A stretch of 46,955 bases of DNA from Acidimicrobiia bacterium (GCA_016871255.1 VFZH01000010.1:1-46955); one strand, 5' to 3'; counted from the stretch's first letter, positions 16,463 through 46,955 are shown. Notes: generated from the letters alone by a model not told the origin. Made by a program: numbers and translations.

Positions 16463-17722
16463 GTGCACCCGCTGATCCTCGACAATCTCGGCAAGCGGTA
16501 CGACGTGGAGGCTGCTGCGGAGAGTCCTCCCGGCACGTTTCGCGAGCGGCTCGCGCGCTGGCGGGACCTGCTGCTCTTCAGGCGTGGGCTCCGACCGGCG
16601 AAGAAGGAGTTCTGGGCGGTCCGCAACGTGTCGCTCACCGTCGAACCGGGCACCATCCTCGGCATCATCGGTCCGAACGGCGCGGGCAAGACGACGCTGC
16701 TGAAGATCCTGGCCCGTGTCACGCCGCCGACCGAGGGTCGCGCCACGGGGCATGGTCGCGTTGTGTCGCTGCTCGAGATGAACGCCGGGTTCAACCCCGA
16801 GTCGTCCGCGCGCGAGAACATCCTGATGAACGCAGCGCTCCACGGCATTTCGAAGGCGGAGGCGCTTGCGAGGACCAGGGACATCCTCGAGTGGGCCGAG
16901 CTCGAGGAGTTCGCCGACCAGCCCCTGAAGCACTACTCGAGCGGCATGGCGGTGCGCCTCGGCTTCTCGGTGGCGATCAACATGAACCCGCAGGTGCTGC
17001 TGGCCGACGAGGTCCTGGCCGTCGGTGACATGGCCTTCCAGGAGCGCTGCATGCAGGCCGTGATCGAGAGCGGCAAGCGGGGGCTGATCGTCCTCTTCGT
17101 GTCGCACGACATGGAGGCCATCGAGCGGGTGTGCAACCGCGTGCTCTGGCTGCACAAGGGGCAGGTGCAGAAGGTCGGGAGTCCTGACGAGGTTGTGGCC
17201 GACTACGAGGACGCGGTCTGGGCGCACTTCGACGCCGGCGCGTTCGAGCGTGGCCGGCGCAGCAGCCGGTTCGCGGCGATCCGCGGCGCCAAGCTGCTGT
17301 CGTCAGCGGGAAGGGAGATCGGCGCCGCCAATGTCACCGAGGACGTGTTCATCGCCATCGAGATCGAGGCGTTCAAGGCGGTGGCCGTGAGAGGGGCCGT
17401 GGATCTCAACGCGAGGAACCAGCTCGTGTTCCGGTGCGAGGACGCCGACTTCCGGCGGGTCACGGCCGGCTTCTACCAGGTCCGCCTGCGCATCCCCGCG
17501 AACCTGCTCTCGGACATCAGCTACACGGCTACTGTCAGCGTGACGACGCTGCGCGAAGGCCAGACTCGGGAGTACCGGCTCATCGCGTACAACGCACTGA
17601 CGTTCATGGCCTTCCACCCCGAACGGGAGGCGCGCGTCGCGGTCAAGGGCAAGCTGGGCAAGACCGGACTGATGGCGCCGAAACTGGAGTGGAGCATCGA
17701 GGAGCACCATGTCGCAGTCTGA
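16463..17722 (+). CDS. wzt: ABC transporter ATP-binding protein for polysaccharide export
   Basis: The 419-residue protein has Walker A GPNGAGKTT (residues 70-78), the signature YSSGMAVRL (158-166), Walker B LLADE with D182 and E183, and the switch His in FVSHDM. The extra N-terminal stretch before the first strand and the IIGPNGAGKTTLLKIL core are typical of Wzt and KpsT-type exporters. Residues from about 255 on form a beta-rich domain matching the position of the Wzt C-terminal carbohydrate-binding domain, which in characterised systems recognises a terminal modification of the chain. The GTG start is immediately followed by the conserved HPLILDNLGKRY. It overlaps the permease gene by 14 bases. 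Confidence 0.93.
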   Translation: MHPLILDNLGKRYDVEAAAESPPGTFRERLARWRDLLLFRRGLRPAKKEFWAVRNVSLTVEPGTILGIIGPNGAGKTTLLKILARVTPPTEGRATGHGRVVSLLEMNAGFNPESSARENILMNAALHGISKAEALARTRDILEWAELEEFADQPLKHYSSGMAVRLGFSVAINMNPQVLLADEVLAVGDMAFQERCMQAVIESGKRGLIVLFVSHDMEAIERVCNRVLWLHKGQVQKVGSPDEVVADYEDAVWAHFDAGAFERGRRSSRFAAIRGAKLLSSAGREIGAANVTEDVFIAIEIEAFKAVAVRGAVDLNARNQLVFRCEDADFRRVTAGFYQVRLRIPANLLSDISYTATVSVTTLREGQTREYRLIAYNALTFMAFHPEREARVAVKGKLGKTGLMAPKLEWSIEEHHVAV

Positions 17723-18602
17723 AGCCGCGGCCAGCGCCGGCCATCTAACCGGCGCTGGTGATCTCCAGCCCTGGGTGATCGAGCCGATCCAGACTGGTTT
17801 CATCGCCGCCGTGCGCGAGTTCTGGAGCTACCGCCGCCTGCTGATGTTCTTCGCGCGCAAGATCGTCGTGGAACGGTACAAGAAGACGACCCTCGGCGGC
17901 TTCTGGCTGATCGCCCGGCCGGCGCTGCCCCTGGTGCTGAATGTCATCATCTTCGGTGCGATCCTCGGCGTGGCGTCCGACGGCTTGCCCTACGCGATGT
18001 TCTTCCTCGTGGGCGCCAGCGCCTGGATGATCTTCCAGCGCGGCCTGCTGCGCGTCACGCTCAGCGTGGATTCGCAGGCCGGTCTGGCGAAGAAGCTGTA
18101 CTTCCCGAGACTGATCCTGCCGTTCGCTGGGATCGCGCCCGCCATCGTGGACTTCCTCGTGTACATCCTGCTGATGATCGTGCTGGCGCTGATCTACCTC
18201 GTCAAGGACGGCCACTGGTACCTGCTCTTCGGACCGCGCCTGCTGCTGGCCCTGTACGCGACGTTCATCATCATGCTGATGACGATCGGTGTCGGCCTGA
18301 TCACGACGGTGTACCAGGTCAGGCATGCCGAGGTCCGGTTCGTGATCGGACACTTCACCGGTTTCTGGATGTTTCTGACCCCGGTGGTGTACCCGATGTC
18401 CCAGATTCCCGGTTCGATGCATTGGGCGGTGTACATGAACCCGCTGTCCGCGCCCGTCGAGACGTTCCGGTGGGCGATCCTCGGCGTTGGCACGCTGCCC
18501 GTGATCCCGCTGGTGCTCTCGTCGGTGGGCATCGTGCTGTTCACGGTGGTCAGCGCCGTGTTCTTCAACCGATCCCAGGGTTCGACTGTCGACGAACTGT
18601 AG
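17709..18602 (+). CDS. wzm: ABC-2 type polysaccharide export permease
   Basis: The 297-residue integral membrane protein has about six hydrophobic segments (near residues 66-89, 93-112, 133-165, 172-202, 211-230 and 262-286). The cytoplasmic N-terminal part includes ERYKKTTLGGFWLIARP, the region seen before the first helix in Wzm, KpsM and TagG. It would pair with the overlapping ATPase to move an undecaprenyl-linked, fully polymerised glycan across the inner membrane. Its ATG lies inside the end of the ATPase gene, and the next gene begins only one base after its stop. Confidence 0.93.
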   Translation: MSQSEAAASAGHLTGAGDLQPWVIEPIQTGFIAAVREFWSYRRLLMFFARKIVVERYKKTTLGGFWLIARPALPLVLNVIIFGAILGVASDGLPYAMFFLVGASAWMIFQRGLLRVTLSVDSQAGLAKKLYFPRLILPFAGIAPAIVDFLVYILLMIVLALIYLVKDGHWYLLFGPRLLLALYATFIIMLMTIGVGLITTVYQVRHAEVRFVIGHFTGFWMFLTPVVYPMSQIPGSMHWAVYMNPLSAPVETFRWAILGVGTLPVIPLVLSSVGIVLFTVVSAVFFNRSQGSTVDEL

Positions 18603-18603
18603 G

Positions 18604-19860
18604 GTGAAAACGTCCCTGCTCCAGCGAGGGCTCGCGCGGTTCGGCCGGATGCTGCGGCCGCTGTTCGCTCCGGACGCCGAGGCCGATCGAGCGCGTTTCG
18701 AAGCCTTCGCGAAGGGCCAGCGCGAGGCCGTCGAGCGCCTGCAGCGGCGGGGCCACGCGCAGTCGGAGCGCCTGACGGAGGTGATGCGCGAGGTCGAGCA
18801 GCTCCGCAAGCAGACCTCCGGGCTGCGCGCGCGCCTCTCGCGGCAGCTCCAGTTCAGCGAGCGGGTGCTGAAGCGCGTCAGCGAGCGCAGCGTCGAGATC
18901 GGCGAAGAGCGCGTCTTCGATCGGCTGGCGCGGATCGGCCGTTCGTCGCAGGCCGTGCTCGTCGGCCCCTGGACGGGCGAAGTCGGCTTCGAGCTGATCT
19001 ACTGGGTCCCGTTCCTGCGCTGGGCCCTCGGCCACGCCGGGATCGATCCCGCCCGCGTCACCGTGTTCTCCAGGGGCGGGGCGCGGCCGTGGTACGACGG
19101 GCTGGCGAACGAGTACGTGGACGCGCTCGACTTCACCACCGCCGACGAGTTCCGGACGCGAACAGCCGTCAGCCGGAAGCAGCGGGGGCTGACCGCGTTC
19201 GATCGCGATCTGCTCCGGCGGGCGTGCGCCGCCCGCGGCGGCGCGCCGGCCCTGATTCACCCAGCCATGATGTACGCGCTGTTCTACCCGTACTGGCGGC
19301 GCGAGGCCCCCCTGGCCCGTGTCCTCGAGTACGTCCGTCCGAGGCGCCACGAGCCGCCGGCACCCCCGGCGGTCCCGCTGCCGGACGACTACGTGGCGGT
19401 GCGGTTCTACTTCAGCGACTGCTTTCCTGACACCCCTGGCAACCGGGCGTTCGTCTCGGCGGTCATCGGCGCGCTGGCCGACCGTCACGACGTGGTCGTC
19501 CTGCACGCCGGGCTGGGCCTGGACGACCACGCCGACACGGCGGTGCACGGGCGGGACCGCGTCCACGTGATCGACGCGGGCGTGTCACCGCGCGACAACC
19601 TCGCCCTGCAGACCGCGATCATCGCCCGGGCGCGCGCGTTCGTCGGCACCTACGGCGGGTTTTCGTACCTGGCCCCGCTTCACGGTGTGGACACCGTCGC
19701 CTTCTATTCGGACCGGAACTTCCAGGTGTCGCACCTGCACATGGCGCAGCACATCAGCGCCGAGGTCGGCGGCGGCACGCTCGTGCCGCTGGATGTCGCC
19801 CACGCGGCGCTCCTGCAGGACGTGCTGCCCGGGAGCCGTTCGCCGGCGGTGGCCCGCTGA
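18604..19860 (+). CDS. Unrecognised protein: N-terminal coiled coil plus transferase-like domain
   Basis: I cannot name this 418-residue protein. Residues about 25-110 are charged and heptad-like (RFEAFAKGQREAVERLQ and so on), suggesting a coiled coil. Then comes a conserved-looking VGPWTGEVGFELIYWVPFLR (residues 120-139) that reads like the start of a catalytic fold, and later a FVGTYGGFSYLAPLHG segment. That last segment resembles the donor-site loop of GT-B and fucosyltransferase-like enzymes. There is no signal peptide or membrane helix. Its position right after wzm suggests a late-acting or chain-related transferase, possibly with the coiled coil serving as a ruler or oligomerisation arm. 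The start is GTG. Confidence 0.5.
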   Translation: MKTSLLQRGLARFGRMLRPLFAPDAEADRARFEAFAKGQREAVERLQRRGHAQSERLTEVMREVEQLRKQTSGLRARLSRQLQFSERVLKRVSERSVEIGEERVFDRLARIGRSSQAVLVGPWTGEVGFELIYWVPFLRWALGHAGIDPARVTVFSRGGARPWYDGLANEYVDALDFTTADEFRTRTAVSRKQRGLTAFDRDLLRRACAARGGAPALIHPAMMYALFYPYWRREAPLARVLEYVRPRRHEPPAPPAVPLPDDYVAVRFYFSDCFPDTPGNRAFVSAVIGALADRHDVVVLHAGLGLDDHADTAVHGRDRVHVIDAGVSPRDNLALQTAIIARARAFVGTYGGFSYLAPLHGVDTVAFYSDRNFQVSHLHMAQHISAEVGGGTLVPLDVAHAALLQDVLPGSRSPAVAR

Positions 19861-23897: not shown

Positions 23898-23966
23898 GCG
23901 GTTCGTCGGGGCACGCCAGCGTACCACACGGCCGGCGCAGCGGTTCCCGCCGCGAACGGTCGTCGC

Positions 23967-23972: not shown

Positions 23973-23997
23973 CGCGTGCTGATGACTGTCGTTCACG

Positions 23998-25174: not shown

Positions 25175-25905
25175 AGCGCCCACCGGTGGCGCTGGTCACC
25201 GGCAGTGCCGGCGAGATCGGCGACCATCTCGTCCGGCACCTGCTCGCCCGCGGCTGGATCGTCCTTGGCGTCGATCGGCGCGAGCGACAGTCCGGAGCCC
25301 CGGATGCGCTGGTGTTCAGGCGGTGCGATCTGGAGGACGCCAACGAGGCAGAGACGGTCCTCGGCGAGCTCGCCGCGTTGCACGGCTGTGCCGACGTGCT
25401 GGTGAACTGCGCGGGTCGGATCGCCAGCGCGCCGCTGGTGACCCGGACGTCCGGCGGCTGGACCGCGCACGACTTCGGGCTGTGGCGCGACGTTCTGGGG
25501 GGGTGCCTGACCACCGCCTTTCACGCCAGTGTGATCACGGCGAGGAACATGCTCGCCGCACGGCGGCGCGGTGTCATCATCAACATCAGTTCGGTGTGCG
25601 CCCGCGGGAACGCCGGGCAGGCGGCGTATTCGGCCGCGAAGGCCGGTCTCGACGGGCTGACCCGTGCGATGGCCAAGGAACTGGGGCCGCTGGGGATCAG
25701 GGCCGTTGGACTCGCGCCGGGGTACTTCGACACGCGTTCGACACGCGATGCCCTGTCTCCAGAGAAGCTCGCCAGGGTCGCCGGGGCGGTGCCGCTGAAG
25801 CGCCTCGGCGCGCTCCCGGAACTGGCGCGCGCGATCGACTTCGTCATCGACAACCCCTACGTGAATGGCACCATCGTCGAAGTGGATGGCGGACTCGTCC
25901 TGTGA
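25165..25905 (+). CDS. SDR oxidoreductase, ketoreductase-like (FabG type)
   Basis: This classical SDR of 246 residues has VTGSAGEIGDHL at the cofactor loop, NCAG in strand 4, NISSVCARGN with the catalytic Ser, and YSAAK with Y155 and K159. It ends with NGTIVEVDGGLVL, typical of FabG-like enzymes. With a carrier protein gene before it and an adenylation gene after it, reduction of a carrier-bound beta-keto acyl group to a hydroxyacyl group is a reasonable guess. A sugar-nucleotide ketoreductase role is the alternative. The loop reads GSAGEIG rather than the usual GxxxGIG, a mild deviation. Confidence 0.88.
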   Translation: MAVERPPVALVTGSAGEIGDHLVRHLLARGWIVLGVDRRERQSGAPDALVFRRCDLEDANEAETVLGELAALHGCADVLVNCAGRIASAPLVTRTSGGWTAHDFGLWRDVLGGCLTTAFHASVITARNMLAARRRGVIINISSVCARGNAGQAAYSAAKAGLDGLTRAMAKELGPLGIRAVGLAPGYFDTRSTRDALSPEKLARVAGAVPLKRLGALPELARAIDFVIDNPYVNGTIVEVDGGLVL

Positions 25906-35112: not shown

Positions 35113-36264
35113 ATGCGCCGCATCTGCGTTGTCATCGGGTCCCGCGCCAACTACGGCAGCATCAAGTCGGTGATGCGCGCTGTCACTGCGCACCCGGACC
35201 TCCAGCTTCAACTGGTCGTCGGCGCGTCCGCCGTGCTCGACCGGTTCGGATCCGTCGTGGACCTGATCGAGCAGGACGGGTTCCGGGTCGATGCCCGCGT
35301 GAACCTGATCATCGAAGGCGAGACGCCCGTGACGATGGCGAAGTCGACCGGGCTCGGGCTGCTGGAGCTGCCCACCCTCTTCGACCTGCTGAAGCCCGAC
35401 GTCGTGGTGAGCGTGGGCGACCGGTTCGAGACGATGGCGACCGCCGTTGCGGCCGTCTACATGAACATCCCGGTCGCGCACACGATGGGCGGCGAGGTCA
35501 GCGGGACGATCGACGAGAGCATCCGGCACGCGGTGACCAAGCTGGCGCACCTGCACTTTCCCGCGAATCGGCTGGCCGGGGAGCGCATCGTCCGCATGGG
35601 CGAAGATCCGGCGTCGGTACACGTGGTGGGCTGCCCGCGGATCGATCTCGTGGCGGAGATCGTGACCGCCGGTGACGGGCTCGACGCCGTGTGGCTCGAG
35701 CGCGAAGGGGTTGGTGGCCACGTGGACCTCTCGACGCCCTTCCTGCTGGTGTCGCAGCACCCGGTGACGACGGAGTACGGGGAAGGGGAGGCGCAGGTCG
35801 CCGAGACGCTGGCGGCGCTCGACGAGCTGGCCATGCCGACGATCATGCTGTGGCCCAACGTGGACGCCGGCTCCGAGGACGTGGCGCGCGGGATGCGCAA
35901 GTTCCGGGAGCGCCGGCGCCCGGACCACATCCGCTTCTACAAGAACTTCCCGGTGGAGCTGTACACCAGGCTGATGCGACGGGCGGCCTGCCTCGTGGGC
36001 AATTCCAGCGCGCCGATTCGCGAGGGGGCGTTTCTCGGCACGCCCGCCGTGAACATCGGCACGCGGCAGCAGGGCCGCGAGCGAGGGGCCAACGTGGTGG
36101 ACGTGCCGCACGAGCGGGCGCGCATCGTCGAGGCGGTGCGCGCGCAGGTCGCGCACGGCCCGTACCCGTCGGAGCACATCTACGGCGACGGGCAGGCCGG
36201 GTCGCGCATCGCGGAGATCCTCGCCGGCGCGCCGCTGAAGCTGCAGAAGCAGATCGCGTACTGA
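35113..36264 (+). CDS. neuC: UDP-GlcNAc 2-epimerase, hydrolysing type (NeuC/LegG-like)
   Basis: The 383-residue protein has the signature of hydrolysing UDP-N-acetylglucosamine 2-epimerases. The start is VIGSRANYGSIKSVM, followed by VSVGDRFETMATA, PVAHTMGGEVSGTIDESIRH and TKLAHLHFPAN, with later QHPVTTEYGE and VGNSSAPIREG. Such enzymes release a ManNAc-type sugar and UDP, the first step to sialic, legionaminic and related nonulosonic acids. GSRANYG differs from the more usual GSRADYG at one position. The gene starts directly after the heptamer repeats and ends before a strong hairpin. A NeuA-like gene follows, but no NeuB synthase is present in the window. Confidence 0.88.
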   Translation: MRRICVVIGSRANYGSIKSVMRAVTAHPDLQLQLVVGASAVLDRFGSVVDLIEQDGFRVDARVNLIIEGETPVTMAKSTGLGLLELPTLFDLLKPDVVVSVGDRFETMATAVAAVYMNIPVAHTMGGEVSGTIDESIRHAVTKLAHLHFPANRLAGERIVRMGEDPASVHVVGCPRIDLVAEIVTAGDGLDAVWLEREGVGGHVDLSTPFLLVSQHPVTTEYGEGEAQVAETLAALDELAMPTIMLWPNVDAGSEDVARGMRKFRERRRPDHIRFYKNFPVELYTRLMRRAACLVGNSSAPIREGAFLGTPAVNIGTRQQGRERGANVVDVPHERARIVEAVRAQVAHGPYPSEHIYGDGQAGSRIAEILAGAPLKLQKQIAY

Positions 36265-36302: not shown

Positions 36303-37022
36303 ATGAGCCCGGGATCCACTCGCACCATCGGCATCATTCCCGCGAGAGGCGGTTCGAAGGGGTTGCCGGGCAAGCATCTGTTGCCGCTCGCCGACCGTCC
36401 GCTCATCGACTGGACGTTCCAGGCTGCGCTGGCGAGCCGGCGGCTCGATCGCGTGATCCTCAGCACCGATGCGCCGGACATCGCCGCCGCGGCGCGGGCG
36501 GCGGGCATCGACGTGCCGTTCGTGCGGCCCGACGGGCTGGCGCGGGACGAGACGCCGATGATCGACGTGCTCGTCCACGCGGTGGCGCAACTGGAGCAGG
36601 CCGGCGACCGGGCGGACGCGGTCGTGCTGCTGCAGCCGACCTCCCCGCTGCGGACCGCCGGACACATCGACCAGGCGGTCGCGCAGTTCGAGGCTTCCGG
36701 TGCGGATGCGGTTGTCAGCGTCGTCCAGGTGCCGCACCGGTACAGCCCTCCTTCGGTGCTGTCGCTCGACGGTGATCGGCTGACGCCTTTCCTGCCAGGG
36801 CCTGCCGCGACGCGCCGTCAGGACAAACCGGCCGTGTACGCGCGCAACGGTCCGGCGGTGCTCGTCGTCCGCCGGGACGTGCTGATGGAGCAGCGCAGCC
36901 TCTACGGCGTGGACACGCGCGCGTTCCTCATGAGCGAGGCCGACTCGGTGGACGTTGACACGGCCTGGGACCTGTCGGTCGCCGCGCTGGCGCTCGCCGG
37001 GCGCGGCGCCGCCGGCCAGTGA
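36303..37022 (+). CDS. neuA: CMP-nonulosonic acid (NeuA-like) cytidylyltransferase
   Basis: The 239-residue protein has the N-terminal nucleotide motif IIPARGGSKGLPGKH, with His at the usual Asn position, followed by DRPLIDWTFQAA. Also present are LLQPTSPLR and an RRQDKPAVYARNGPAVLV stretch that fits the NeuA active site. It would activate a nonulosonic or related acid with CTP to give the CMP-sugar donor. CMP-Kdo synthetases are less similar in these motifs. A GGGG patch lies seven bases upstream. It is followed within four bases by copy 2 of family X, so the CMP-sugar may be a substrate of that family (inference). Confidence 0.88.
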   Translation: MSPGSTRTIGIIPARGGSKGLPGKHLLPLADRPLIDWTFQAALASRRLDRVILSTDAPDIAAAARAAGIDVPFVRPDGLARDETPMIDVLVHAVAQLEQAGDRADAVVLLQPTSPLRTAGHIDQAVAQFEASGADAVVSVVQVPHRYSPPSVLSLDGDRLTPFLPGPAATRRQDKPAVYARNGPAVLVVRRDVLMEQRSLYGVDTRAFLMSEADSVDVDTAWDLSVAALALAGRGAAGQ

Positions 37023-37025: not shown

Positions 37026-38816
37026 ATGCGGGTCCTCTTCTGCGCCCGTCACTTCGGCGCGTTCCGCAACTACGAGACCCTTATCGCCGAGCTGGCCGGG
37101 CGCGGCCACGACATCCACCTCGCCGCAGATGTCGAGGACGTGCTCGGCGGGCAGGCGCTCGTCGAGCGGCTGGCCGCGTCACTGCCCGGCGTGACCTGGG
37201 GCATGGCACCGTCGATCGAAGGCTGGCTGTGGCAGCGGACCACGTTCCAGGTGCGCCACGGGCTCGAGGCCGTTCGCTTCGCCGCGCGCGCGTACGACGC
37301 CCTCCCGAAGTACCGGCACCGCTCGGCGCCCAAGGCCCCGTGGCTCGTGCGGCGTCTCGCCGGCACCGAGCCAGGCCGCCGGGTGACCGGCCGGGTGCTG
37401 CGGGCCGTCGAGCGGGGCATCCCGCCGCCGCCGGCCCTCGTCGGGTGGCTGCGGGACCGCGAGCCTGAAGTCGTGCTGCTGGCGTCGGTGACCAACGACG
37501 GCGCGCCGCAGATGGATCACCTGAAGGCGGCGCTCTCCCTTGGCATGCGGACGTCGCTCCCGATCTACAGCTGGGACCACCTGTCGGGCAAGGCGCCGCT
37601 GCACATCGCCCCGCACCAGGTGCTGGTGTGGAACGACACTCAGCGCCGGGAGGCGGTGGACCTGCACGGGCTGCCGGCCGACCGGCTGGTCGTGACGGGC
37701 GCCTACGGATACGAGCCGTGGCTGTCCGCATCCCCGTCGAAGACGCGCACCGCGTTTCTGGAGGACTGCGGGCTCGACCCGGCGCAGGCCCTGCTCGTGT
37801 ATGTCTGCTCGGTGCTGTCGCGGCCCGCGCCGCCTGAAGCCCCGTTCGTGCTGGAGTGGGTGCGTGCACTCCGCGCCTCGGGCGATCCACGCCTGCAGGC
37901 GGCCAACGTGATCGTGCGGCCGCACCCGGAGCGGCTCGGGGAGTGGGACGGGGTCGACCTGACCGGCCTGGCCCCGATCGCCGTGCGCGGGCGCAACCCG
38001 ATCGACGCCGAAGCGAAGGCCGAGTACTTCGACACCCTGCACCACGCCGCGGCGGTCGTGGGCATCGTGACGAGTGCGTTCATCGAGGCGGCGGCGGCCG
38101 GCCGGCCCGCGCTGACAATCGAAGCCCCCCGGTTCGTCGAGCACCAGCGGGGTGCTCCCCACTACCACTACCTGCGCGACGACGAACACGGGCTGCTGGT
38201 CGCGGCTCCCGATCTCGCCACCCATGCCGGGCAGCTCGCCGCGGTGCTGTCAGGCGCCGACGGCGGGGCGGCGGCGGTGCGCGCGTCGCGATTCGTGGAC
38301 CGGTTCGTGCGGCCGCCCGGGGGCGCGATCAACGCCAGGGCGGCGTGCGCCGCGGCGGTGGAAGCACTCGCCGGTGCGGCGGCGCCGCGGCCGCAGCCGT
38401 TCGGCCGTGGCGTGGCGGGGCTGTGCGCCCGGACGATGCGACTGCTCGATGCCACGCCGATCCTCGGCCGCAGCCTCTGGAACGACCACGACCGGGCGGT
38501 GGCCGGCCGCGACGCCGAGGCGCGGCGCGAGAAGGACGCGATTGTGGCTGGCCGGCGGGAGTACCAGGCGCGCGAGGACCGCGAGCGGGCCGAGCGGGAG
38601 CGGCTGAAGGCCGTCCGCGCGCGGGAGAAGCAGGCGCGGATTGACGCCAGGGAACGCGGCCGCGCGCGGGAGAAGGAAGCCCGTCTGGAGGAGCGGCGGG
38701 TGCGCGGGGCGGCGAAGGTCAGGCGCGAGCGGGCCCGTCAGGCCGCCCGGGAGCGGGAACGGCTGAAGAAGCGCCTGTGGCGGACGGCACGCCGGCTGTT
38801 GAGGCTCGGGTCGTGA
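37026..38816 (+). CDS. Family X GT-B-like protein, copy 2, with long charged helix
   Basis: This 596-residue copy opens with MRVLFCARHFGAFRNYETLI and has SWDHLSGKA, VWNDTQRREAVDLHGLP, VRPHP and YFDTLHHAAAVVGIVTSAFI. The otherwise common EGTLHF motif is lost (here RGAPHYHYL). It is the most divergent of the six. Residues 496-596 are almost entirely Arg, Glu, Lys, Ala and Asp in a pattern (RERAERERLKAVRAREKQAR and similar) expected to form a single long charged helix or coiled coil. An in-frame GTG directly precedes the ATG I chose. It follows the NeuA-like gene closely and its stop overlaps the formyltransferase start. Confidence 0.65.
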   Translation: MRVLFCARHFGAFRNYETLIAELAGRGHDIHLAADVEDVLGGQALVERLAASLPGVTWGMAPSIEGWLWQRTTFQVRHGLEAVRFAARAYDALPKYRHRSAPKAPWLVRRLAGTEPGRRVTGRVLRAVERGIPPPPALVGWLRDREPEVVLLASVTNDGAPQMDHLKAALSLGMRTSLPIYSWDHLSGKAPLHIAPHQVLVWNDTQRREAVDLHGLPADRLVVTGAYGYEPWLSASPSKTRTAFLEDCGLDPAQALLVYVCSVLSRPAPPEAPFVLEWVRALRASGDPRLQAANVIVRPHPERLGEWDGVDLTGLAPIAVRGRNPIDAEAKAEYFDTLHHAAAVVGIVTSAFIEAAAAGRPALTIEAPRFVEHQRGAPHYHYLRDDEHGLLVAAPDLATHAGQLAAVLSGADGGAAAVRASRFVDRFVRPPGGAINARAACAAAVEALAGAAAPRPQPFGRGVAGLCARTMRLLDATPILGRSLWNDHDRAVAGRDAEARREKDAIVAGRREYQAREDRERAERERLKAVRAREKQARIDARERGRAREKEARLEERRVRGAAKVRRERARQAARERERLKKRLWRTARRLLRLGS

Positions 38817-39619
38817 GCGTCCGCGTCGTCGTGCTCACCAGCACGTTTCCGCGTCACCGGTGGGTCGCCGCCCGGCTCGCGGCGGCGCTCGACGTGGCAG
38901 GTGTGTGGCAGGAGGAGAAGTCGTTTCAGCCGCTCCGCTACGCGGGGAACGACGACGAGCAGCGGATCATCGGCGAGCACTTCGCCGCCCGCGACGCATC
39001 GGAGGCTGCGTGGTTCGGCGCGACGGATATCGCCGCCGCTCAGGGGCCGCGAACGCACCGCGTCCCGCCTGGCGGCTGCAACGATCCGGGGGAGGTGGCG
39101 TCGATGACGCGGCTCGCGCCCGACGTGGTGCTGGTGTTCGGCACGGGCATCCTGAAGCGCGACCTGATCGACGCCTTCGCCGGGCGGATCCTGAACCTGC
39201 ACCTGGGGCTGTCGCCGTACTACCGCGGTGCCGGCACCAACTTCTGGCCCCTGGTCAATCGCGAGCCGGAATACGTGGGTGCGACGATCCACTACCTCGA
39301 CGAGGGGATCGACACGGGGCCGATCATCGAGCACGTGCGGCCGGAGATCCTGCCGGCTGACGGGCCGCACGACCTGGGCAACCGGACGATCGTGGCCGCC
39401 GCGGAACGGCTGGCCGCCGCGGCGATCGCGCACGTCGCCGGGCGACTGCACGCGGTGCCGCAGTGGAGTGGCGGCCGCCTGTATCAGCGGAAGGACTTTT
39501 CCGCCTCCGCCGTGGTCCGGATGCACGAGCAGTTCGCCTCCGGCATGATCCCCGAATACCTGGCCCGGCGGACCGCCCGGGATGCCCGCCTGCGGCTGGT
39601 CCGGACCCCGCCTGCCTGA
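38813..39619 (+). CDS. Sugar N-formyltransferase-like protein
   Basis: The 268-residue protein has the formyltransferase catalytic pattern: NLHLGLSPYYRGAGTNFWPL with N128 and H130, and DEGIDTGPII with D167. These are the Asn/His/Asp residues of methionyl-tRNA formyltransferase-fold enzymes. Without the tRNA-recognising domain of Fmt, and within a polysaccharide cluster, it is more like VioF/WlaRD-type enzymes that formylate a 4-amino or 3-amino sugar nucleotide with 10-formyl-tetrahydrofolate. A GTG start overlaps the previous stop (GTGA). It is embedded between copies 2 and 3 of family X. Confidence 0.85.
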   Translation: MSVRVVVLTSTFPRHRWVAARLAAALDVAGVWQEEKSFQPLRYAGNDDEQRIIGEHFAARDASEAAWFGATDIAAAQGPRTHRVPPGGCNDPGEVASMTRLAPDVVLVFGTGILKRDLIDAFAGRILNLHLGLSPYYRGAGTNFWPLVNREPEYVGATIHYLDEGIDTGPIIEHVRPEILPADGPHDLGNRTIVAAAERLAAAAIAHVAGRLHAVPQWSGGRLYQRKDFSASAVVRMHEQFASGMIPEYLARRTARDARLRLVRTPPA

Positions 39620-39643
39620 TCACCCCACAGAAGCCCTAAGCTG

Positions 39644-39672
39644 TTGAATACACGGTAGGATCCGGCTACACT
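39644..39672 (+). promoter_or_regulatory. Sigma70-like promoter ahead of family X copies 3-6
   Basis: TTGAAT (39644-39649) and TACACT (39667-39672) are separated by exactly 17 bases, each matching four of six consensus bases, in a locally AT-richer part of the 298-base gap after the formyltransferase gene. It would start a transcript near 39679 with a leader of about 240 bases. This is the best promoter candidate I see in the window. Confidence 0.6.
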
Positions 39673-39815
39673 AACCCGGTTGCGCACGACCCTCGGTCCA
39701 CCCCGCGCCCGGGTGTTTCTCTCGTCAGTCGCTCTCACTCGTTTGTTGCCGTCCGGGCGGGCCGGAGGGGGCGGACGTCCCTGTACCGGCCTTCGGGATC
39801 TGGGTTGAGGCGGGC

Positions 39816-39833
39816 CCGGCCCCTTCGGGCCGG
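39816..39833. other. Stable hairpin in the leader of copy 3
   Basis: CCGGCCC and GGGCCGG flank a CTTC loop, a perfect seven-pair GC stem about 85 bases before the family X copy 3 start. No T-run follows, so it is not a standard terminator. It could be part of a structured leader. Confidence 0.55.
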
Positions 39834-39889
39834 TGCCAGGAGAATTGGAGCCGTTTCGCGCGCCTGCCCTGTAGGCGAGAGGGCGGAGC

Positions 39890-39910
39890 GTGTACGAGTG
39901 GTGGATCTGA
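39890..39910 (+). other. Possible six-codon leader ORF (Tyr-Glu-Trp-Trp)
   Basis: GTG-TAC-GAG-TGG-TGG-ATC-TGA is preceded by GAGAGGG at a six-base distance and ends seven bases before the TTG start of copy 3, which has no site of its own. Coupled re-initiation is conceivable. A six-codon frame can easily arise by chance. Confidence 0.25.
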
Positions 39911-39917
39911 CACTCCG

Positions 39918-41414
39918 TTGAAGATTCTGTTCTCGGTTTCGCACTTCGGCTTCCTCCGCAACGCGGAGCCGGCGCTCGCCCGGCTGGCGGCGCGCGGGCA
40001 CCGGATCCATCTGCTCGCCGATCGCCGGGACTCGCTCGGCGGCGAGACGACGATCGCCAACCTGATGGCCGACTACCCCGATCGCTTCACGTTCGGGTAC
40101 GTCCCGTCACGCAAGGCGGAAGCCTTCCAGCCGCTGGCGACTGTGCTCCGGCTGTCGCTGGACTACTGGCGGTATCTGGACCGCCGCTACGACGATGCCG
40201 TGAGCCTGCGCGCGCGGGCGGCGCGCCAGGCCCCCGCGTTCGCGGTGCGGCTGGCGTCGCTGCCGATCGTCGGTTCACCGGCGGGGTCGCGTGTCCTTCG
40301 CGCGATCGTCCGGCGCGTCGAGCGGGCGCTGCCGTACGGCCGTGTGCCGGACGCCATCCTCGACGAGCACCAGCCGGACGTGCTGCTGGTGACGCCGCTG
40401 CTCTACTTCGGATCGGCGCAGGTGGACTACGTGCGTGCCGCACGGGCGCGGGGCATCCCCACGTGCCACGCGGTGGGCAGCTGGGATCACCTGACGACGA
40501 AGGGGCTGATTCACGAGGTGGCCGATCGGATGACCGTGTGGAACGAGGCGCAGCGGCGTGAGGCGGCGGAGTGGCACGGCGTGTCTCCGGACCGTGTGGT
40601 GGTCACCGGGGCACAGGCCTACGACCGCTGGTTCACGCAGGCGCCGTCCACGTCGCGGGACGCATTCTGCGAGATGGTCGGGCTGCCCGCCGATCGACCG
40701 ATTCTGCTCTACCTCTGCTCATCTCCCTTCATCGCCCCGCAGGAAGTGCCGTTCGTCCGGCGCTGGCTCGAGGCGCTGCGGCGCGCGGCTGACGCGCGGG
40801 TCTCCGGCGCGGCCGTGCTGGTACGGCCGCATCCGCAGAACGCGGAGCAGTGGAGCGGCGTGGATCTGTCGGAGTACGGCGCCGTGGCGATCTGGCCCCG
40901 CGCCGGGGCCAACCCGCTCGACGCCGCGTCGCGCGCCGTGTACTTCGATTCGATGTACCACGCCGTGGCGGTGGTTGGCGTCAACACGAGCGCGCAGATC
41001 GAGTCGGGCGTCGTGGGCCGGCCCGTCTGCGCCATCCAGGACGGGACGTTCGCGGGTACGCAGGAAGGCACGCTGCACTTCCGCCACCTGATGAGCGTGA
41101 ACGGGGGATTGCTGCACCTGGCCTCGACGCTGGGCGAGCACGTCGAGCAGCTGGCGGCGATTCTCGCGGCGCCGGACGAACACGCGGCGCGCAGCCGGTC
41201 CTTCATCGAGGCGTTCGTGCGCCCACGGGGCCTGGAGCAGCCGGCCGCGGAGCACTTTGCCGCGGCCATCGAGTCGATGCCGCGCACGGTGCCCCGGTCC
41301 ACCGCGCGCCCGCTCGATCGTCTCATCGCGGCGCTGGCGGCCCCGGTGGCCGCCGCGCTGGGAAGGGCGGCCGCACGCAGTCGCGCCGCCCGCAAGCAGG
41401 CGGCCGGCGCGTGA
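39918..41414 (+). CDS. Family X GT-B-like protein, copy 3
   Basis: The 498-residue protein begins with LKILFSVSHFGFLRNAEPAL (TTG read as Met), which lines up exactly with the starts of copies 2, 5 and 6, so the TTG is well supported despite the missing ribosome-binding site. It keeps all the family motifs: SWDHLTTKG, VWNEAQRREAAEWHGV, VRPHPQN, YFDSMYHAVAVVGVNTSAQI and EGTLHFRHL. It is the first gene after a probable promoter and a long leader. Its TGA overlaps the GTG of the fused copy 4. Confidence 0.7.
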   Translation: MKILFSVSHFGFLRNAEPALARLAARGHRIHLLADRRDSLGGETTIANLMADYPDRFTFGYVPSRKAEAFQPLATVLRLSLDYWRYLDRRYDDAVSLRARAARQAPAFAVRLASLPIVGSPAGSRVLRAIVRRVERALPYGRVPDAILDEHQPDVLLVTPLLYFGSAQVDYVRAARARGIPTCHAVGSWDHLTTKGLIHEVADRMTVWNEAQRREAAEWHGVSPDRVVVTGAQAYDRWFTQAPSTSRDAFCEMVGLPADRPILLYLCSSPFIAPQEVPFVRRWLEALRRAADARVSGAAVLVRPHPQNAEQWSGVDLSEYGAVAIWPRAGANPLDAASRAVYFDSMYHAVAVVGVNTSAQIESGVVGRPVCAIQDGTFAGTQEGTLHFRHLMSVNGGLLHLASTLGEHVEQLAAILAAPDEHAARSRSFIEAFVRPRGLEQPAAEHFAAAIESMPRTVPRSTARPLDRLIAALAAPVAAALGRAAARSRAARKQAAGA

Positions 41415-44023
41415 AGGTTCTCTTCGTCGTCGCCTCGCCCGAGTACCTCCGGTACTACGACTCCGTCCTGCGGGAACTGGCCCGGCGCGGCCACGACGTG
41501 TCGATCGCCGTCAACCAGGTCAAGGAGCAGAAGCAGGCCCGCTTCGAAGGGGTCAGCGACGTGGTCACGGTGCTTGGCGTCGTGCCGCCCAGAGACGACC
41601 GGTGGTCGCGTCTGGCGAAGGGGGTACGCGGCACGATCGACTTCGCGCGCTACCTGCACCCCGACTACCGCGACGCGGCCGCACTGCGCGACCGCATGCG
41701 CCGCAAGGTGCTGCCGCGCGCGATGCGCTGGCTCGATCGCATCCCGTCGCTGGGCGAGAGGCCGCTCGGCCTGCTGACCCGGGTTCTCGGGCAGGTCGAG
41801 CGGGGCGTCCCGGTGTCGGGCCGGCTGACCGCGTTCCTGGACGCGCAACGTCCCGACGTGCTGGTCGTGTCGCCCCTGATTGACGCGGCCTCGGATCAGG
41901 TGGACCTGGTGCGCGCGGCCCGGCGCCTGGGGATCCGCGTGGCGGTCGGGATTGCGAGCTGGGACAACCTGACCAACAAGGGGCTGCTCCGCGTGATCCC
42001 CGACCTGCTCCTCGTCTGGAACGAGGCGCAGAAGGCCGAAGCGGTCCGCTTCCACGGCATCCGGCCGGAGGCGGTGGCCGTCACGGGCGCGCAGTTGTTC
42101 GACCGGTGGTTCGAGCGGGTGCCGAGCCGCGGCCGCGAGGCCTTCTGCCGCGGGGTGGGGCTGCCGGACGCCCGCCCGTTCCTGCTCTACACCGCCTCGT
42201 CGGTCTTCATCGCGCGATCGGAGCTGGAGCTGCCGTTCGCGCGGACCTGGATCGAGGCGCTGCGGCGCTCGGCCGATCCGGCGGTGCGTGACGTCGCCGT
42301 GCTGGTCCGGCCGCATCCCTACAACTGGCACGCCTGGGAGAACGCCGACCTGGGCGACCTGGGTCCCGTCCAGGTCTGGCCGCGCGGTCCCTACAACGCC
42401 ATCGCCGAAGAGACGCGCGCCGGGTACTTCGACTCGATGTTCCACAGCGCGGGCGTCGTCGGGCTGAACACCAGCGCCATGCTGGAGTCGGCGATTGTGG
42501 GCCGGCCGGTCTTCTCGCTCACGAGCGGAGACTTCGCCGGCACGCAGGAGGGCACGCTGCATTTCCACCACCTGCTGCCGGAGAACGGCGGGTTCCTGCG
42601 GGTGGCGTCCACACTCGACGACCACGTCGCACAGCTGTCGCAGGTGCTCCGCGATCCCGCGGTGGCCATCGAGGAGACCAGGCGCTTCGTGGCGTCGTTC
42701 GTGAGGCCGCACGGCGTGGATCGGCCCTGCACGCCGATCGTCGCAGACACGCTCGAGGCGTTCGGCGCGCGCCCGGTCCCGCCGCCCGAGCGGGATCGCC
42801 CGGCCGATCTGGTGACGCGGACGCTGCTGCGTCCCGCTGCGGCGCTGACCAACCTGACGCCCGGCTCGAAGCAGGCCCGGAAGAAAAAGAAGAAGAGCCG
42901 GCAGACGGGACGGACAGCGAAGGCCGGGCGGGAGGGCACGCCGGGGACGACGGCGGCCGCCCCCAGAGATCCCTGGAGCACCTACGCGGAGGTGCGCGAT
43001 CTGGTCTGCCGCATCAAGGCCGATGACGCCAGCGGGGAGGCCGGGGTCGCGTCACCCAGCGCGTACTGGGCCGGAGAACTGGGCAACATCGACTACATGA
43101 TCGAGGCGACGCCGCTCGTGGTCGCCAAGCTGCGCCACCACGCGTCCCACATCACCGGACTGCGGCCGTACGACTACCGCGTCCAGACCGACGAGAAGCG
43201 GGCGCTCTTCGAGGAGCGCCTGCGTGCGCTGATCCGCCTCGGGGGGAAGAAGCTGGTCGTCCCGGAGCACCCGGCGCTCGGCGGCTTCGGTTACGAGATC
43301 GATGGCCGGCTGTTCAACCTCGACACGCTGAAGTTCCTGGAAGTGCTGGTGGGGCTGCAGCGATCGGGTGTGCTCGACGAGCTGCGCGGGCCCGGGAAGC
43401 GGCCGGTCGTGTGGGAGATCGGCGCCGGGTGGGGCGGGTTCGCCTGCCAGTTCAAGACGCTGGTGCGCGGCGCGGTCTACGTGATCACGGACCTGCCGGA
43501 GCTGTTCCTCTTTTCCGCGACCTACCTGCGCACGGTGTTCCCCTCGGCGCGGACGCTGATCTGGCACAAGGGCCTGAAACCCGCGGAGCGCGCCCGCTGG
43601 CGCGAACACGACTTCGTGTTCGTGCCCAACGCGTGTGCGGGCGAGCTGGCCGGCTTCGATCCGGACCTGCTCGTGAACATCGCGTCGTTCCAGGAAATGA
43701 CGGCGGCTCAGGTCGCCGGATACGTGGACCTGGCCGCCCGCGCCGGGTGCCGGCACGTCTACAGCCTGAATCGTGAGCGCTCGCGGTACAACGACGAGCT
43801 GACGTCGGTCGGTGACCTGCTCCGGGAGCGCTACGACCTGACCGACGTGTCACCGCTCGAAACCGACTACACGACGGCGATGAAGAAGCCGGCTCGCCCG
43901 CAGACGACGCCGGTCGAGGAGGCTCGCGCCCGGGAGGCGCTGGTCTACCGGCACCTGCTCGGCAGGCTGCGGACGGTGGAGCCCGCCGCGGTCGACGTCC
44001 ACGAGGAGGCGGCGGCCCGGTGA
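41411..44023 (+). CDS. Fusion: family X GT-B-like domain plus putative sugar O-methyltransferase
   Basis: The 870-residue protein is two enzymes in one frame. Residues 1 to about 465 are family X (SWDNLTNKG, VWNEAQKAEAVRFHGI, VRPHPYN, YFDSMFHSAGVVGLNTSAML, EGTLHFHHL). A basic linker with five lysines in a row follows (491-495). From about residue 530 comes a second domain with VPEHPALGGFGYEIDGRLF, VVWEIGAGWGGFACQFK (666-682) and VYVITDLPELFLFSATYL. I associate that domain with the putative sugar O-methyltransferase family (NanM/TIGR04371-like). The GAGWGG loop would bind SAM. No internal stop or frameshift separates the halves. The start is a GTG overlapping the previous stop. Fusion suggests transfer and methylation of the same residue. 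Confidence 0.75.
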   Translation: MKVLFVVASPEYLRYYDSVLRELARRGHDVSIAVNQVKEQKQARFEGVSDVVTVLGVVPPRDDRWSRLAKGVRGTIDFARYLHPDYRDAAALRDRMRRKVLPRAMRWLDRIPSLGERPLGLLTRVLGQVERGVPVSGRLTAFLDAQRPDVLVVSPLIDAASDQVDLVRAARRLGIRVAVGIASWDNLTNKGLLRVIPDLLLVWNEAQKAEAVRFHGIRPEAVAVTGAQLFDRWFERVPSRGREAFCRGVGLPDARPFLLYTASSVFIARSELELPFARTWIEALRRSADPAVRDVAVLVRPHPYNWHAWENADLGDLGPVQVWPRGPYNAIAEETRAGYFDSMFHSAGVVGLNTSAMLESAIVGRPVFSLTSGDFAGTQEGTLHFHHLLPENGGFLRVASTLDDHVAQLSQVLRDPAVAIEETRRFVASFVRPHGVDRPCTPIVADTLEAFGARPVPPPERDRPADLVTRTLLRPAAALTNLTPGSKQARKKKKKSRQTGRTAKAGREGTPGTTAAAPRDPWSTYAEVRDLVCRIKADDASGEAGVASPSAYWAGELGNIDYMIEATPLVVAKLRHHASHITGLRPYDYRVQTDEKRALFEERLRALIRLGGKKLVVPEHPALGGFGYEIDGRLFNLDTLKFLEVLVGLQRSGVLDELRGPGKRPVVWEIGAGWGGFACQFKTLVRGAVYVITDLPELFLFSATYLRTVFPSARTLIWHKGLKPAERARWREHDFVFVPNACAGELAGFDPDLLVNIASFQEMTAAQVAGYVDLAARAGCRHVYSLNRERSRYNDELTSVGDLLRERYDLTDVSPLETDYTTAMKKPARPQTTPVEEARAREALVYRHLLGRLRTVEPAAVDVHEEAAAR

Positions 44024-45555
44024 AGATCCTCTTCGTCGCGCGGCACTTCACCTACCTTCGCAACTTCGACTCGGTGCTGTCCGCGCTGGCCGAGCGGGGC
44101 CATCACGTCCACGTGGCGGTGGAGCAGGACGAGACGTTCGGCGGCACGGATCTCATGGGGCGCCTCGTGCGCCAGTACCCGGACCGGATCACGGCGGGGC
44201 CGGCGGCCCAGCCGAAAGGGCGGTGGTACACGCTCGCGGTTCGCCTGCGGTTCGGCGTCGACTACCTGCGCTACCTCGAGCCGGCCTACGCCGAGATGCC
44301 CCGCCTGCGGCTCCGATCGCGCGTGCGTGCTCCGGTGGCGGTGGTGCGGCTGACCGACCGCTGGCCGTTCCGCACCGGACCGCTGCGGCGGGCCCTGGCC
44401 CGGCTGCTCTCCGCGATCGAGCGTACGCTGCCGCGCAGTCCGGAGGTCCGGTCGTTCCTGGAGGCTCAGGCGCCCGACGTCGTCCTGTTCACGCCCCTCA
44501 TCGGCGTCGTGGCCTCGCCGCAGCTCGACCACCTGTACGCGGCGCAGACGCTGGGCCTGCCGACGGCGCTGGCGGTGTGGAGCTGGGATCACCTGTCGAG
44601 CAAGGCGATCATCCGCACGGTCCCCGACCGGGTGATCGTCTGGAACCCGACCCAGCAGGAGGAGGCCGTTCGCCTCCACGGCGTGCCGCCTTCGCGTGTC
44701 GTTGTCACCGGAGCTCAGTGTTTCGATCGCTGGTTCGACCGGGAGCCGTCACGCCCGCGGGCCGGGTTCGCGCGCCGGGTGGGGCTGCCTGACGACCGGC
44801 CGTACCTGCTCTGGGTGTGTTCGGCGCTCTTCAAGGGCAGCCCGCCGGAGGCCGGGTTCGTGATGCGCTGGATCCGCGAGCTCCGGGCGAGCGGGCATCC
44901 CGAGCTGGCCGACGTGCCGATCCTCGTGCGACCGCACCCCTCGCGCCTGGCCGAATGGCAGGACGTGGACGTATCGCGGGAACCCGGGGTTGCGCTCTGG
45001 GGCAGCAACCCGATCGACGCGGACGCCCGCGCCGACTACTTCGACTCGCTGTTCCACTGCGCCGCCGTGGTCGGCCTGAACACGAGCGCGTTCATCGAGG
45101 GCGCGATCGCCGGCCGGCCCACGTACACCATCCTGCTGCCGGAGTACTTCGAGAACCAGGAAGGCACGCTGCACTTCCACTACCTGCTGGACGGGCTGCT
45201 GCACGCCAGCCGCTCGTTCACGGACCACGCGGCCCAGCTCGCGGCCGCCGTGCGGGGAGAGGGCGACGCCGATCGAAGCCGGCGGTTCGTCGAGCAGTTC
45301 GTGCGCCCGCACGGACGTTCGACGGCGGCCACGCCGCGGTTCGTGGACGCCGTCGAGGCCCTGCCGGGCGTCGAACGGTCCGCGGCCGCGCCGGTCGGCC
45401 TGCTCACGCGCCTGGCGACGCGGGCGTTCGTGGCGGCCACGTGGACGAAGACCGGGTGGCTGCTGATGTACGACGAGGCGGGCGCCGCGAAGGAGAAGCG
45501 CAGGGAGGCCGAGCGTGCGGCCACCGGACGTGGTGGGAAGGCGACGGCCGCCTGA
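44020..45555 (+). CDS. Family X GT-B-like protein, copy 5
   Basis: The 511-residue protein has MKILFVARHFTYLRNFDSVL, SWDHLSSKA, VWNPTQQEEAVRLHGVP, VRPHPSR, YFDSLFHCAAVVGLNTSAFI and EGTLHFHYL. It is closest to copies 3 and 6. The last 60 residues hold a short hydrophobic stretch around TRAFVAATWTKTGWLLMY and a Lys/Arg/Glu-rich end. Start GTG overlaps the previous stop by four bases, and its stop shares one base with the next ATG. Confidence 0.68.
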   Translation: MKILFVARHFTYLRNFDSVLSALAERGHHVHVAVEQDETFGGTDLMGRLVRQYPDRITAGPAAQPKGRWYTLAVRLRFGVDYLRYLEPAYAEMPRLRLRSRVRAPVAVVRLTDRWPFRTGPLRRALARLLSAIERTLPRSPEVRSFLEAQAPDVVLFTPLIGVVASPQLDHLYAAQTLGLPTALAVWSWDHLSSKAIIRTVPDRVIVWNPTQQEEAVRLHGVPPSRVVVTGAQCFDRWFDREPSRPRAGFARRVGLPDDRPYLLWVCSALFKGSPPEAGFVMRWIRELRASGHPELADVPILVRPHPSRLAEWQDVDVSREPGVALWGSNPIDADARADYFDSLFHCAAVVGLNTSAFIEGAIAGRPTYTILLPEYFENQEGTLHFHYLLDGLLHASRSFTDHAAQLAAAVRGEGDADRSRRFVEQFVRPHGRSTAATPRFVDAVEALPGVERSAAAPVGLLTRLATRAFVAATWTKTGWLLMYDEAGAAKEKRREAERAATGRGGKATAA

Positions 45556-46955
45556 TGCGCATCCTCTTCCTCGTCCGGCACTACGCCTACCTGCGGAACT
45601 TCGAGTCCGCGGTGCTCGAGCTCACGCGCCGCGGACACGAGGTCCACGTGTCGGCCGACAAGTGGGAGCTGCTCGGCGGCGAGCAGCTCGTGGGGCGGCT
45701 GGCCCGGGAGTCCGGGGGACGGCTGACGTACGGGTGGACCAGGGGGCGCGAGGCGGGGGCGTGGGCGGAGATGGCGCGGCGGTTGCGCCTGGCGCTCGAC
45801 TGCCTGCGGTTCGTCGATCCGCTGTACGACGCGACGCCGCACCTGCGGGCGCGGGCGCGCGAGCGCGCCCCGCGCATGCTCCTGCGACTGATGCGGCTGC
45901 CAGGGCTGGGCGGTCCGGTCGGCGCCAGGCGCCTCGAGCGCCTGCTGCGCTGGCTGGAGTCCGCCGTCCCGCGAAGCCGGCGGCTCGACCGGTTTCTCCG
46001 GGAGCAGCGGCCGGACGTCGTGCTGATCACACCGCTCATCGAGCTGGGCACGCCCCAGCTCGATCACCTCGTGTCCGCGCGGGCGCTCGGGATGCGCACC
46101 GTACTGGCTGTCGGAAGCTGGGACCACCTGTCGAGCAAGTCGCGGCTTCGCGTGCTGCCGGACCTGGTCACGGTGTGGAACCCGGTCCAGCAGCGCGAGG
46201 CGGTCGATCTGCACGGGGTGCCGGAGGATCGTGTCGCCGTCACCGGCGCGCAGTGCTTCGACCAGTGGTTCGACCGGGCACCGTCGCGATCCCGCGAGGC
46301 GTTCCTCGACCGTGTCGGCCTGCCCCGCGAGGGGCCGTTCATCCTCTACGTCTGCTCGTCGCTCTTCCGCGGCACCGGCAGCGAAGCACGCTTCGTCGAG
46401 CGCTGGATTCAGCACCTCCGTGCCAGCGGCGACCCGGTCCTGAGCCGGGCGCCGATCCTGGTGCGTCCCCACCCGCAGCGGACGGAGGAGTGGGCGGGCG
46501 CGGACCTGTCGTCGTTCCGCGACGTGGTGCTGTACGGATCGCACCCGATCGACACCGAGTCGAAGAACGACTACTTCGACTCGATGCACCACGCCGCGGC
46601 GGTCGTCGGCCTGAACACGAGCGCGTTCATCGAGGCCGGGTGCGTCGGGCGCCCGGTCTACACCGTGCTGCTGCCCGAGCTGTCGGACCGGAACCAGGAA
46701 GGCACGCTGCACTTCCGCTACCTGCTCGACGTCAACGGCGGCCTCCTGCACACCGCGCGCAGCCTGGAGGACCACGCGTCGCAGCTGTCCGCCGCGCTGG
46801 CGGGCCGCGCCACCGACAAGAGCCGCGCGTTCGTCGAGGGCTTCGTCCGTCCCTACGGCCTGGAGTCGCCGTCCACGCCGCGCTTCGCGGACGCGATCGA
46901 GGCGCTCGGGGCGCGCCCGGCGCCGGTGCCCGACGCGGTGCCGCTCGCGCGGGTG
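45555..46955 (+). CDS. Family X GT-B-like protein, copy 6 (partial, runs off right edge)
   Basis: The frame is open from the ATG (TGATG overlap with copy 5) to the end of the window, giving 467 residues without a stop. It begins MRILFLVRHYAYLRNFESAV and has SWDHLSSKS, VWNPVQQREAVDLHGVP, VRPHPQR, YFDSMHHAAAVVGLNTSAFI and EGTLHFRYL. By comparison with copies 3 and 5 it lacks perhaps its last 30-60 residues. The gene array may continue beyond the window. Confidence 0.7.
   Translation, partial: MRILFLVRHYAYLRNFESAVLELTRRGHEVHVSADKWELLGGEQLVGRLARESGGRLTYGWTRGREAGAWAEMARRLRLALDCLRFVDPLYDATPHLRARARERAPRMLLRLMRLPGLGGPVGARRLERLLRWLESAVPRSRRLDRFLREQRPDVVLITPLIELGTPQLDHLVSARALGMRTVLAVGSWDHLSSKSRLRVLPDLVTVWNPVQQREAVDLHGVPEDRVAVTGAQCFDQWFDRAPSRSREAFLDRVGLPREGPFILYVCSSLFRGTGSEARFVERWIQHLRASGDPVLSRAPILVRPHPQRTEEWAGADLSSFRDVVLYGSHPIDTESKNDYFDSMHHAAAVVGLNTSAFIEAGCVGRPVYTVLLPELSDRNQEGTLHFRYLLDVNGGLLHTARSLEDHASQLSAALAGRATDKSRAFVEGFVRPYGLESPSTPRFADAIEALGARPAPVPDAVPLARV

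What the first reader, a model, noticed from the sequence alone, without database searches (positions are those of the whole stretch)
37026..46955. Tandem array of a GT-B-like family (five of six window copies in a row)
Copies 2-6 lie together, broken only by a formyltransferase gene and by an O-methyltransferase fused to copy 4; copy 1 sits apart at 14.5 kb. All six share SWD(N/H)L..K, VWN..Q..EA...HG, RPHP and (F/Y)FD(S/T)...A.VVG..TSA.(I/L)E. I know no characterised family with this combination. Such expansion could reflect one enzyme per linkage in a long repeat unit, a processive assembly line, or several specialised transferases for one CMP- or dTDP-sugar.
Basis: partly seen in the sequence, partly recalled or inferred. 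Interest (0 to 1): 0.8.

Follow-up and report, generated by a model that had tools for sequence, protein, structure and literature searches.

The report
Glycosyltransferase array in sialic-acid-like locus
An uncultured acidobacterium carries an old, conserved row of related but never characterised sugar-linking enzymes beside genes that make sialic-acid-like sugars and export a surface polysaccharide; these enzymes probably build that polysaccharide, and some or all of them probably add the sialic-acid-like units.

Summary
In detail: copies 2-6 lie at 37,026-46,955 and copy 1 at 14,563. The genome has nine copies; relatives have up to 16. AlphaFold2 gives a confident GT-B fold (pLDDT 93). No Pfam, NCBIfam or PDB family claims them by its curated cut-off; the only sequence kin is a weak match to the NCBIfam "BFO_1060 family glycosyltransferase". 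The array is not a recent amplification: copies 3, 4, 5, 6 and the contig-C62 copy each have their own orthologue, in the same order, in another genome. It sits in a nonulosonic-acid (sialic-acid-like) surface-polysaccharide locus: NeuC and a CMP-sugar synthetase abut copy 2, NeuB lies within about 4 kb of a copy in 18 genomes, and a Wzm/Wzt-type ABC exporter and a sugar O-methyltransferase are attached. The family has the RXHP plus (T/S)S-A-xx-E signature of CMP-sugar transferases but lacks the D/E-D/E-G motif of GT38/52/80. Best reading: a new GT-B family, probably CMP-nonulosonate transferases, one per linkage, of an ABC-exported glycan. Donor specificity is inferred, not shown. A second uncharacterised GT-B family, resembling GT9, is interleaved.

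The parts
14563..16425 (+). Copy 1 of the GT-B family, with a long basic C-terminal tail; directly before the ABC exporter
   Evidence: own-genome search with copy 5, E 5.7e-83; alignment
16463..17722 (+). ABC exporter ATPase (Wzt-like, with C-terminal extension)
   Evidence: Pfam ABC_tran 2.9e-24; orthologue next to the array in G005
17709..18602 (+). ABC exporter membrane subunit (Wzm-like)
   Evidence: Pfam ABC2_membrane 6.2e-12
18604..19860 (+). Member of a second uncharacterised family (u18604), predicted GT-B resembling GT9; its paralogues are interleaved with the array in relatives
   Evidence: model pLDDT 90.9, heptosyltransferase II Z 14.5, positions
35113..36264 (+). NeuC-type UDP-N-acetylglucosamine 2-epimerase
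   Evidence: TIGR03568 383 bits, cut-off 235.9
36303..37022 (+). CMP-sugar (nonulosonate-type) cytidylyltransferase
   Evidence: CTP_transf_3 1.3e-23; PseF 133 bits, below cut-off 205.7
37026..38816 (+). Copy 2, GT-B family, basic C-terminal tail
38813..39619 (+). Formyltransferase (possibly a sugar N-formyltransferase)
   Evidence: Formyl_trans_N 4.5e-17; 4-base overlap with copy 2
39918..41414 (+). Copy 3, GT-B family
41411..44023 (+). Copy 4: GT-B domain (about 41411-42900) fused to a NanM-type sugar O-methyltransferase domain (about 42965-44020)
   Evidence: TIGR04371 3.6e-22 over cut-off
44020..45555 (+). Copy 5, GT-B family; the copy whose structure was predicted
45555..46955 (+). Copy 6, GT-B family, cut by the contig end

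Best explanation
The copies are GT-B glycosyltransferases of one uncharacterised family. With NeuB/NeuC/CMP-synthetase pathways, a formyltransferase, O-methyltransferases, a second GT-B family and a Wzm/Wzt-type ABC exporter they form a conserved surface-polysaccharide locus of Vicinamibacterales-like Acidobacteriota. Each copy probably makes one linkage of a long oligosaccharide or repeat built in the cytoplasm and then exported. At least some copies probably use CMP-nonulosonic acids: the Arg and His of RXHP would hold cytosine and phosphate, and the (T/S)S-A-xx-E segment phosphate and ribose. Copy 4 is coupled to O-methylation of its product or of the chain end. Shown: homology, predicted GT-B fold, gene context, conserved order and age. 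Inferred: donor, one copy per linkage, export route, methylation target.
For: Confident GT-B model of copy 5 (NeuC 5zlr Z 22.3, rmsd 4.0, 335 aligned, also MurG, WaaA, TarL). R304 70/70, H306 68/70, P307 69/70, T/S355 and S/T356 70/70, E/D360 70/70; the spacing equals the CMP-binding (K/R)XHP and S-S-V-xx-E residues of KrkA (PMC12887879). NeuC (over its cut-off) and a CMP synthetase directly before copy 2, a cassette that recurs in about ten other loci. NeuB within about 4 kb of a family copy in 18 genomes (read together). Orthologous gene order Wzt-Wzm-u18604-c3-c4/NanM-c5-c6-...-GT-NeuB-NeuC-CMP synthetase on one contig of G005. Orthologous lines in the tree.
Against: No nucleotide, donor or glycan was tested. 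The nearest folds are UDP-binding epimerases. The D/E-D/E-G motif of GT38/52/80 is absent. HP without the basic residue also occurs in UDP-binding NeuC. Profile comparison does not single out a CMP- or CDP-using family. There are 8-16 copies per genome but only about 2-4 NeuB, so many copies may use other donors. NeuB is common in genomes without the family too, and no matched control with another GT family was run for the adjacency.
Confidence: 0.55

Rival explanations
1. The family is a general GT-B family with mixed donors (UDP-, dTDP-, GDP- or CMP-sugars), one enzyme per linkage in a complex heteropolysaccharide; nonulosonic acid is only one of several residues and only one or two copies use it.
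For: More copies than nonulosonate pathways; the window also encodes UDP-glucose dehydrogenase, 4,6-dehydratase-like SDRs and three DegT aminotransferases; nearest folds bind UDP.
Against: RXHP and (T/S)S-A-xx-E are kept in nearly all copies, which suggests one nucleotide type across the family.
Confidence: 0.33
2. The proteins are not transferases but epimerases or hydrolases of the NeuC/WecB kind that prepare sugars.
For: NeuC and WecB are the closest folds.
Against: About 13% identity, profile match to the locus's own NeuC set only E 0.036, genuine NeuC proteins already present in the same loci, and 8-16 copies per genome.
Confidence: 0.04
3. A recent local tandem amplification or an assembly artefact without functional division of labour.
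For: The genes are adjacent and the genome is a fragmented assembly.
Against: Copies are 38-56% identical to copy 5 while orthologues in another genome are 64-80% identical and in the same order; the tree groups by position, not by genome; many independent assemblies and one isolate carry the family.
Confidence: 0.02

Closest known systems
NCBIfam NF046086, BFO_1060 family glycosyltransferase (Tannerella forsythia); possibly related to GtfS, the nonulosonate transferase of that organism's O-glycan
   Same: 69 of 70 members match weakly, best 3e-15, mainly over the SWD...VWN...HG segment. T. forsythia GtfS is a GT-B type alpha-2,4 Pse5Am7Gra transferase in a nonulosonate cluster (PMC6120980).
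   Different: Never near the 200-bit cut-off. That BFO_1060 is GtfS of strain 92A2 is a guess; no paper held here says so.
CMP-nonulosonate/Kdo GT-B transferases: GT38, GT52, GT80 sialyltransferases; GT99, GT107, GT118, GT140 Kdo/Pse transferases
   Same: (K/R)XHP plus (S/T)S-x-xx-E at KrkA spacing; nonulosonate context; best of five profile comparisons was to the Capsule_synth (KpsC/KpsS) set, E 1.7e-11, not decisive.
   Different: No D/E-D/E-G motif; no direct sequence match to PDB chains of these families.
UDP-GlcNAc 2-epimerases NeuC/WecB
   Same: Closest solved folds (5zlr Z 22.3, rmsd 4.0, 335 aligned).
   Different: 13% identity; RPHP in place of SQHP/MQHP; profile comparison with this locus's NeuC set E 0.036.
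CDP-glycerol/ribitol phosphotransferases (PF04464, TagF/TarL)
   Same: GT-B; TarL Z 18.8; RXHP aligns with KXHP; two remote kin (L093, L095) match both PF04464 and this family.
   Different: Clean Glyphos_transf set only E 2.6e-6; none of the nine own-genome copies is a PF04464 match.

Membership tests
GT-B fold glycosyltransferases | Two Rossmann-like domains, whole-length match to GT-B structures | tested here: met
   Model pLDDT 93.3, pTM 0.92; GT-B matches over residues 1-452
BFO_1060 family (NF046086) | Curated score cut-off of 200 bits | tested here: not met
   Best about 50 bits in 59 relatives; own copies 13-47 bits
GT38/GT52/GT80 bacterial sialyltransferases | HP motif that binds the CMP phosphate | tested here: met
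   H 68/70, P 69/70; role of HP from PMC2169525
GT38/GT52/GT80 bacterial sialyltransferases | D/E-D/E-G motif | tested here: not met
   No column triplet has it in more than 3 of 70 members
CMP-ulosonate transferases in general | (K/R)XHP with following (S/T)S-x-xx-E at KrkA spacing | tested here: met
   R 70/70; pattern in 100 of 107 family sequences under a loose spacing test; KrkA residues from PMC12887879
CMP-ulosonate transferases in general | Transfer from a CMP-ulosonate donor | not testable with these tools
   Needs enzyme assay
GT99/GT107/GT118/GT140 Kdo/Pse transferases | Sequence or fold kinship to KpsC, WbbB, KpsS1 or KrkA | tested here: inconclusive
   Capsule_synth profile set E 1.7e-11 against controls 1.6e-8 and 6.7e-8; none among the 50 fold matches shown
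CDP-glycerol phosphotransferase (PF04464) | Pfam gathering score (22.1 bits) | tested here: not met
   No match in G000 at E <= 0.001
CMP-nonulosonate biosynthesis locus | NeuB, NeuC and CMP-nonulosonate synthetase encoded together with the GTs | tested here: met
   Window: NeuC and CMP synthetase; NeuB on C62 next to another copy, joined to the same locus in G005. NeuB and CMP-synthetase scores lie under the equivalog cut-offs, so the exact sugar is open.

The most novel reading that the evidence does not exclude
The array is an 8-16-member family of CMP-nonulosonate transferases, a new CAZy family, that together build a hetero-polymer made largely of several different nonulosonic acids (formylated, O-methylated), with each paralogue fixed to one residue and linkage.
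Probability: 0.25. Interest if true: 0.75.

Novelty: new variant of a known kind. Interest (0 to 1): 0.52.

Why it matters
If even some copies transfer CMP-nonulosonic acids, this is a large new family of such transferases, which are few, hard to recognise by sequence and wanted as tools for making sialic-acid-like sugars. It would also show that a widespread uncultured lineage builds an elaborate sialic-acid-like coat with an ordered set of paralogous enzymes, so that enzyme order could be tested against glycan sequence.

Tried and rejected
1) Recent tandem duplication: rejected by tree and gene order. 2) Profile-profile comparison to find the donor class: the first Glyphos_transf result (E 1.4e-21) was an artefact of two set members (L093, L095) that are remote kin of the query family; without them it is 2.6e-6, no better than the GT4 or WecB controls. 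The Capsule_synth result (1.7e-11) is the best but not decisive, and its reference set consists of weak PF05159 matches. 3) Confirming from papers that BFO_1060 is T. forsythia GtfS: not found. 4) PDB by sequence profile: only chance matches. 5) A genome-contig search with all nine copies failed for lack of conserved stretches; a four-copy alignment worked. 6) Literature on nonulosonic acids with Acidobacteria and glycosyltransferases, and on Vicinamibacter glycosyltransferase tandems: no paper in the open-licence library held here. 7) Among the 50 fold matches shown for the GT model, WaaA is the only Kdo- or sialyltransferase; that does not exclude kinship to others.

Full report
OBSERVATION. 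The window is one whole contig (C10) of a 3.9-Mb, 243-contig genome. Six copies of one family lie on the + strand at 14563, 37026, 39918, 41411, 44020 and 45555; the last runs off the contig end. Three further copies are on C62, C34 and C96. The nine align over about 450 residues with invariant SWD, VWN..Q..E, RPHP and VVG..TSA..E segments. The array is tightly packed: CMP synthetase/copy 2, copy 2/formyltransferase, copies 3/4, 4/5 and 5/6 abut or overlap by 1-4 bases.

WHAT THE PROTEINS ARE. No Pfam family reaches its cut-off; only weak Glyco_transf_4 signals appear. NCBIfam gives weak matches to the BFO_1060 glycosyltransferase family in 69 of 70 members, best 3e-15, while the curated cut-off of 200 bits is far off. 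The PDB has no sequence relative. A 70-member alignment gave a confident model of copy 5 (pLDDT 93.3, pTM 0.92). It is GT-B: NeuC 5zlr Z 22.3 (rmsd 4.0, 335 aligned), then other 2-epimerases, MurG, MGD1, WaaA and TarL.

AGE AND SPREAD. In a sample of relatives, 28 of 59 genomes have the family, often 8-16 copies, in clusters; several genera of the same family-level group have none. Named relatives are mostly uncultured Acidobacteriota (some labelled Vicinamibacterales), with rarer members in Solirubrobacter soli DSM 22325, a Gaiellaceae MAG, a Rhodospirillaceae MAG and others. In the tree, copies 3, 4, 5, 6 and the C62 copy each pair first with their own counterpart from record CANKJK010000005. 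So the duplications predate the divergence of these genera, and gene order appears to be kept. The end of the window contig very probably continues, after a gap, into C62.

CONTEXT. NeuC (over its curated cut-off) and a PseF/NeuA-like CMP synthetase stand directly before copy 2, and this cassette recurs in about ten other loci. C62 carries GT-NeuB-NeuC-CMP synthetase-SDR. Reading together, NeuB lies within about 4 kb of a family GT in 18 genomes. NeuB itself is common also in genomes without the family (57 of 59 genomes, counting remote homologues), so the evidence is adjacency, not co-occurrence; no matched control with another GT family was run. A Wzm/Wzt-type ABC exporter and a NanM-type O-methyltransferase, fused to copy 4 here and in G005 and next to the corresponding GT in others, belong to the locus.

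DONOR. KrkA structures show CMP held by its (K/R)XHP position and by S-S-V-xx-E; the (K/R)XHP motif is described there as shared by GT29, 38, 42, 52, 80, 99 and 107 (PMC12887879). Here R is 70/70, H 68/70, and (T/S)(S/T)-A-xx-E has the same spacing in almost all members; in profile alignments these segments fall on the equivalent ones of Capsule_synth and Glyphos_transf proteins. Against a simple filing under sialyltransferases, the D/E-D/E-G motif that is essential in the GT38 polysialyltransferase (PMC2169525) is missing. HP without the basic residue also occurs in UDP-binding NeuC, and profile comparison did not separate donor classes once a contaminated set was cleaned. CMP-nonulosonate use is therefore the most likely but unproven reading: about 0.6 for at least some copies, about 0.25-0.3 for most of them.

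MECHANISM. Most likely each copy catalyses one linkage of a cytoplasmically assembled glycan that the Wzm/Wzt-like exporter moves out. A second uncharacterised family (u18604, GT9-like GT-B fold), with 77 hits across the window and related loci, is interleaved and probably makes other linkages. By analogy with known ABC-exported O-antigens (my own knowledge, not tested), the methyltransferase tied to copy 4 might cap the chain. Processivity is untested.

NOVELTY. The fold and the general role are known. The family, its ordered ancient expansion and its interleaving with a second unknown GT-B family are not described in anything found here; the paper search covered only open-licence full texts.

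Noticed in passing
18604-19860; L026, L027, L030 and others: Second uncharacterised family (u18604: GPW..E.GFELLYW.PFL, RGG..WY, DDH, GTYGGFSYLAP) with 77 hits in the loci, interleaved with the GT array; predicted GT-B, closest to GT9 heptosyltransferases (Z 14.5), no Pfam or NCBIfam match.
   Followed up: partly
L061 (Solirubrobacter soli DSM 22325), 4476-20297: A cultured actinobacterium with two family copies, Wzm/Wzt, NanM, CMP synthetase and NeuB genes within about 16 kb: a tractable test organism.
   Followed up: no
G004:C49:5654-7159; G011:C1:51036-52520; G002:C113:8124-9617; G031:C100:1069-2514: Copies with in-frame TGA codons in relatives, possibly decayed genes or assembly errors.
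   Followed up: no
37026-38816 and 14563-16425, C-terminal ends: Copies 1 and 2 end in long Arg/Lys-rich tails, perhaps for membrane association.
   Followed up: no
L030, L032, L033, L037, L043: Two distinct NeuC types (about 650 and 440 bits to the window's NeuC), most with a CMP synthetase next to them, flank one array, so at least two different CMP-nonulosonates may be made.
   Followed up: no
10114-11721; 25165-27406; 23193-24062: Sulfotransferase-like gene, an SDR followed by an AMP-binding ligase, and a WbqC-like gene in the same surface-polysaccharide region; role in the glycan unknown.
   Followed up: no
12856-14505: Two overlapping long frames; the frame with HAREAGFKRG...GESGPA looks like the real gene, possibly a further glycosyltransferase; not tested against families.
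   Followed up: no
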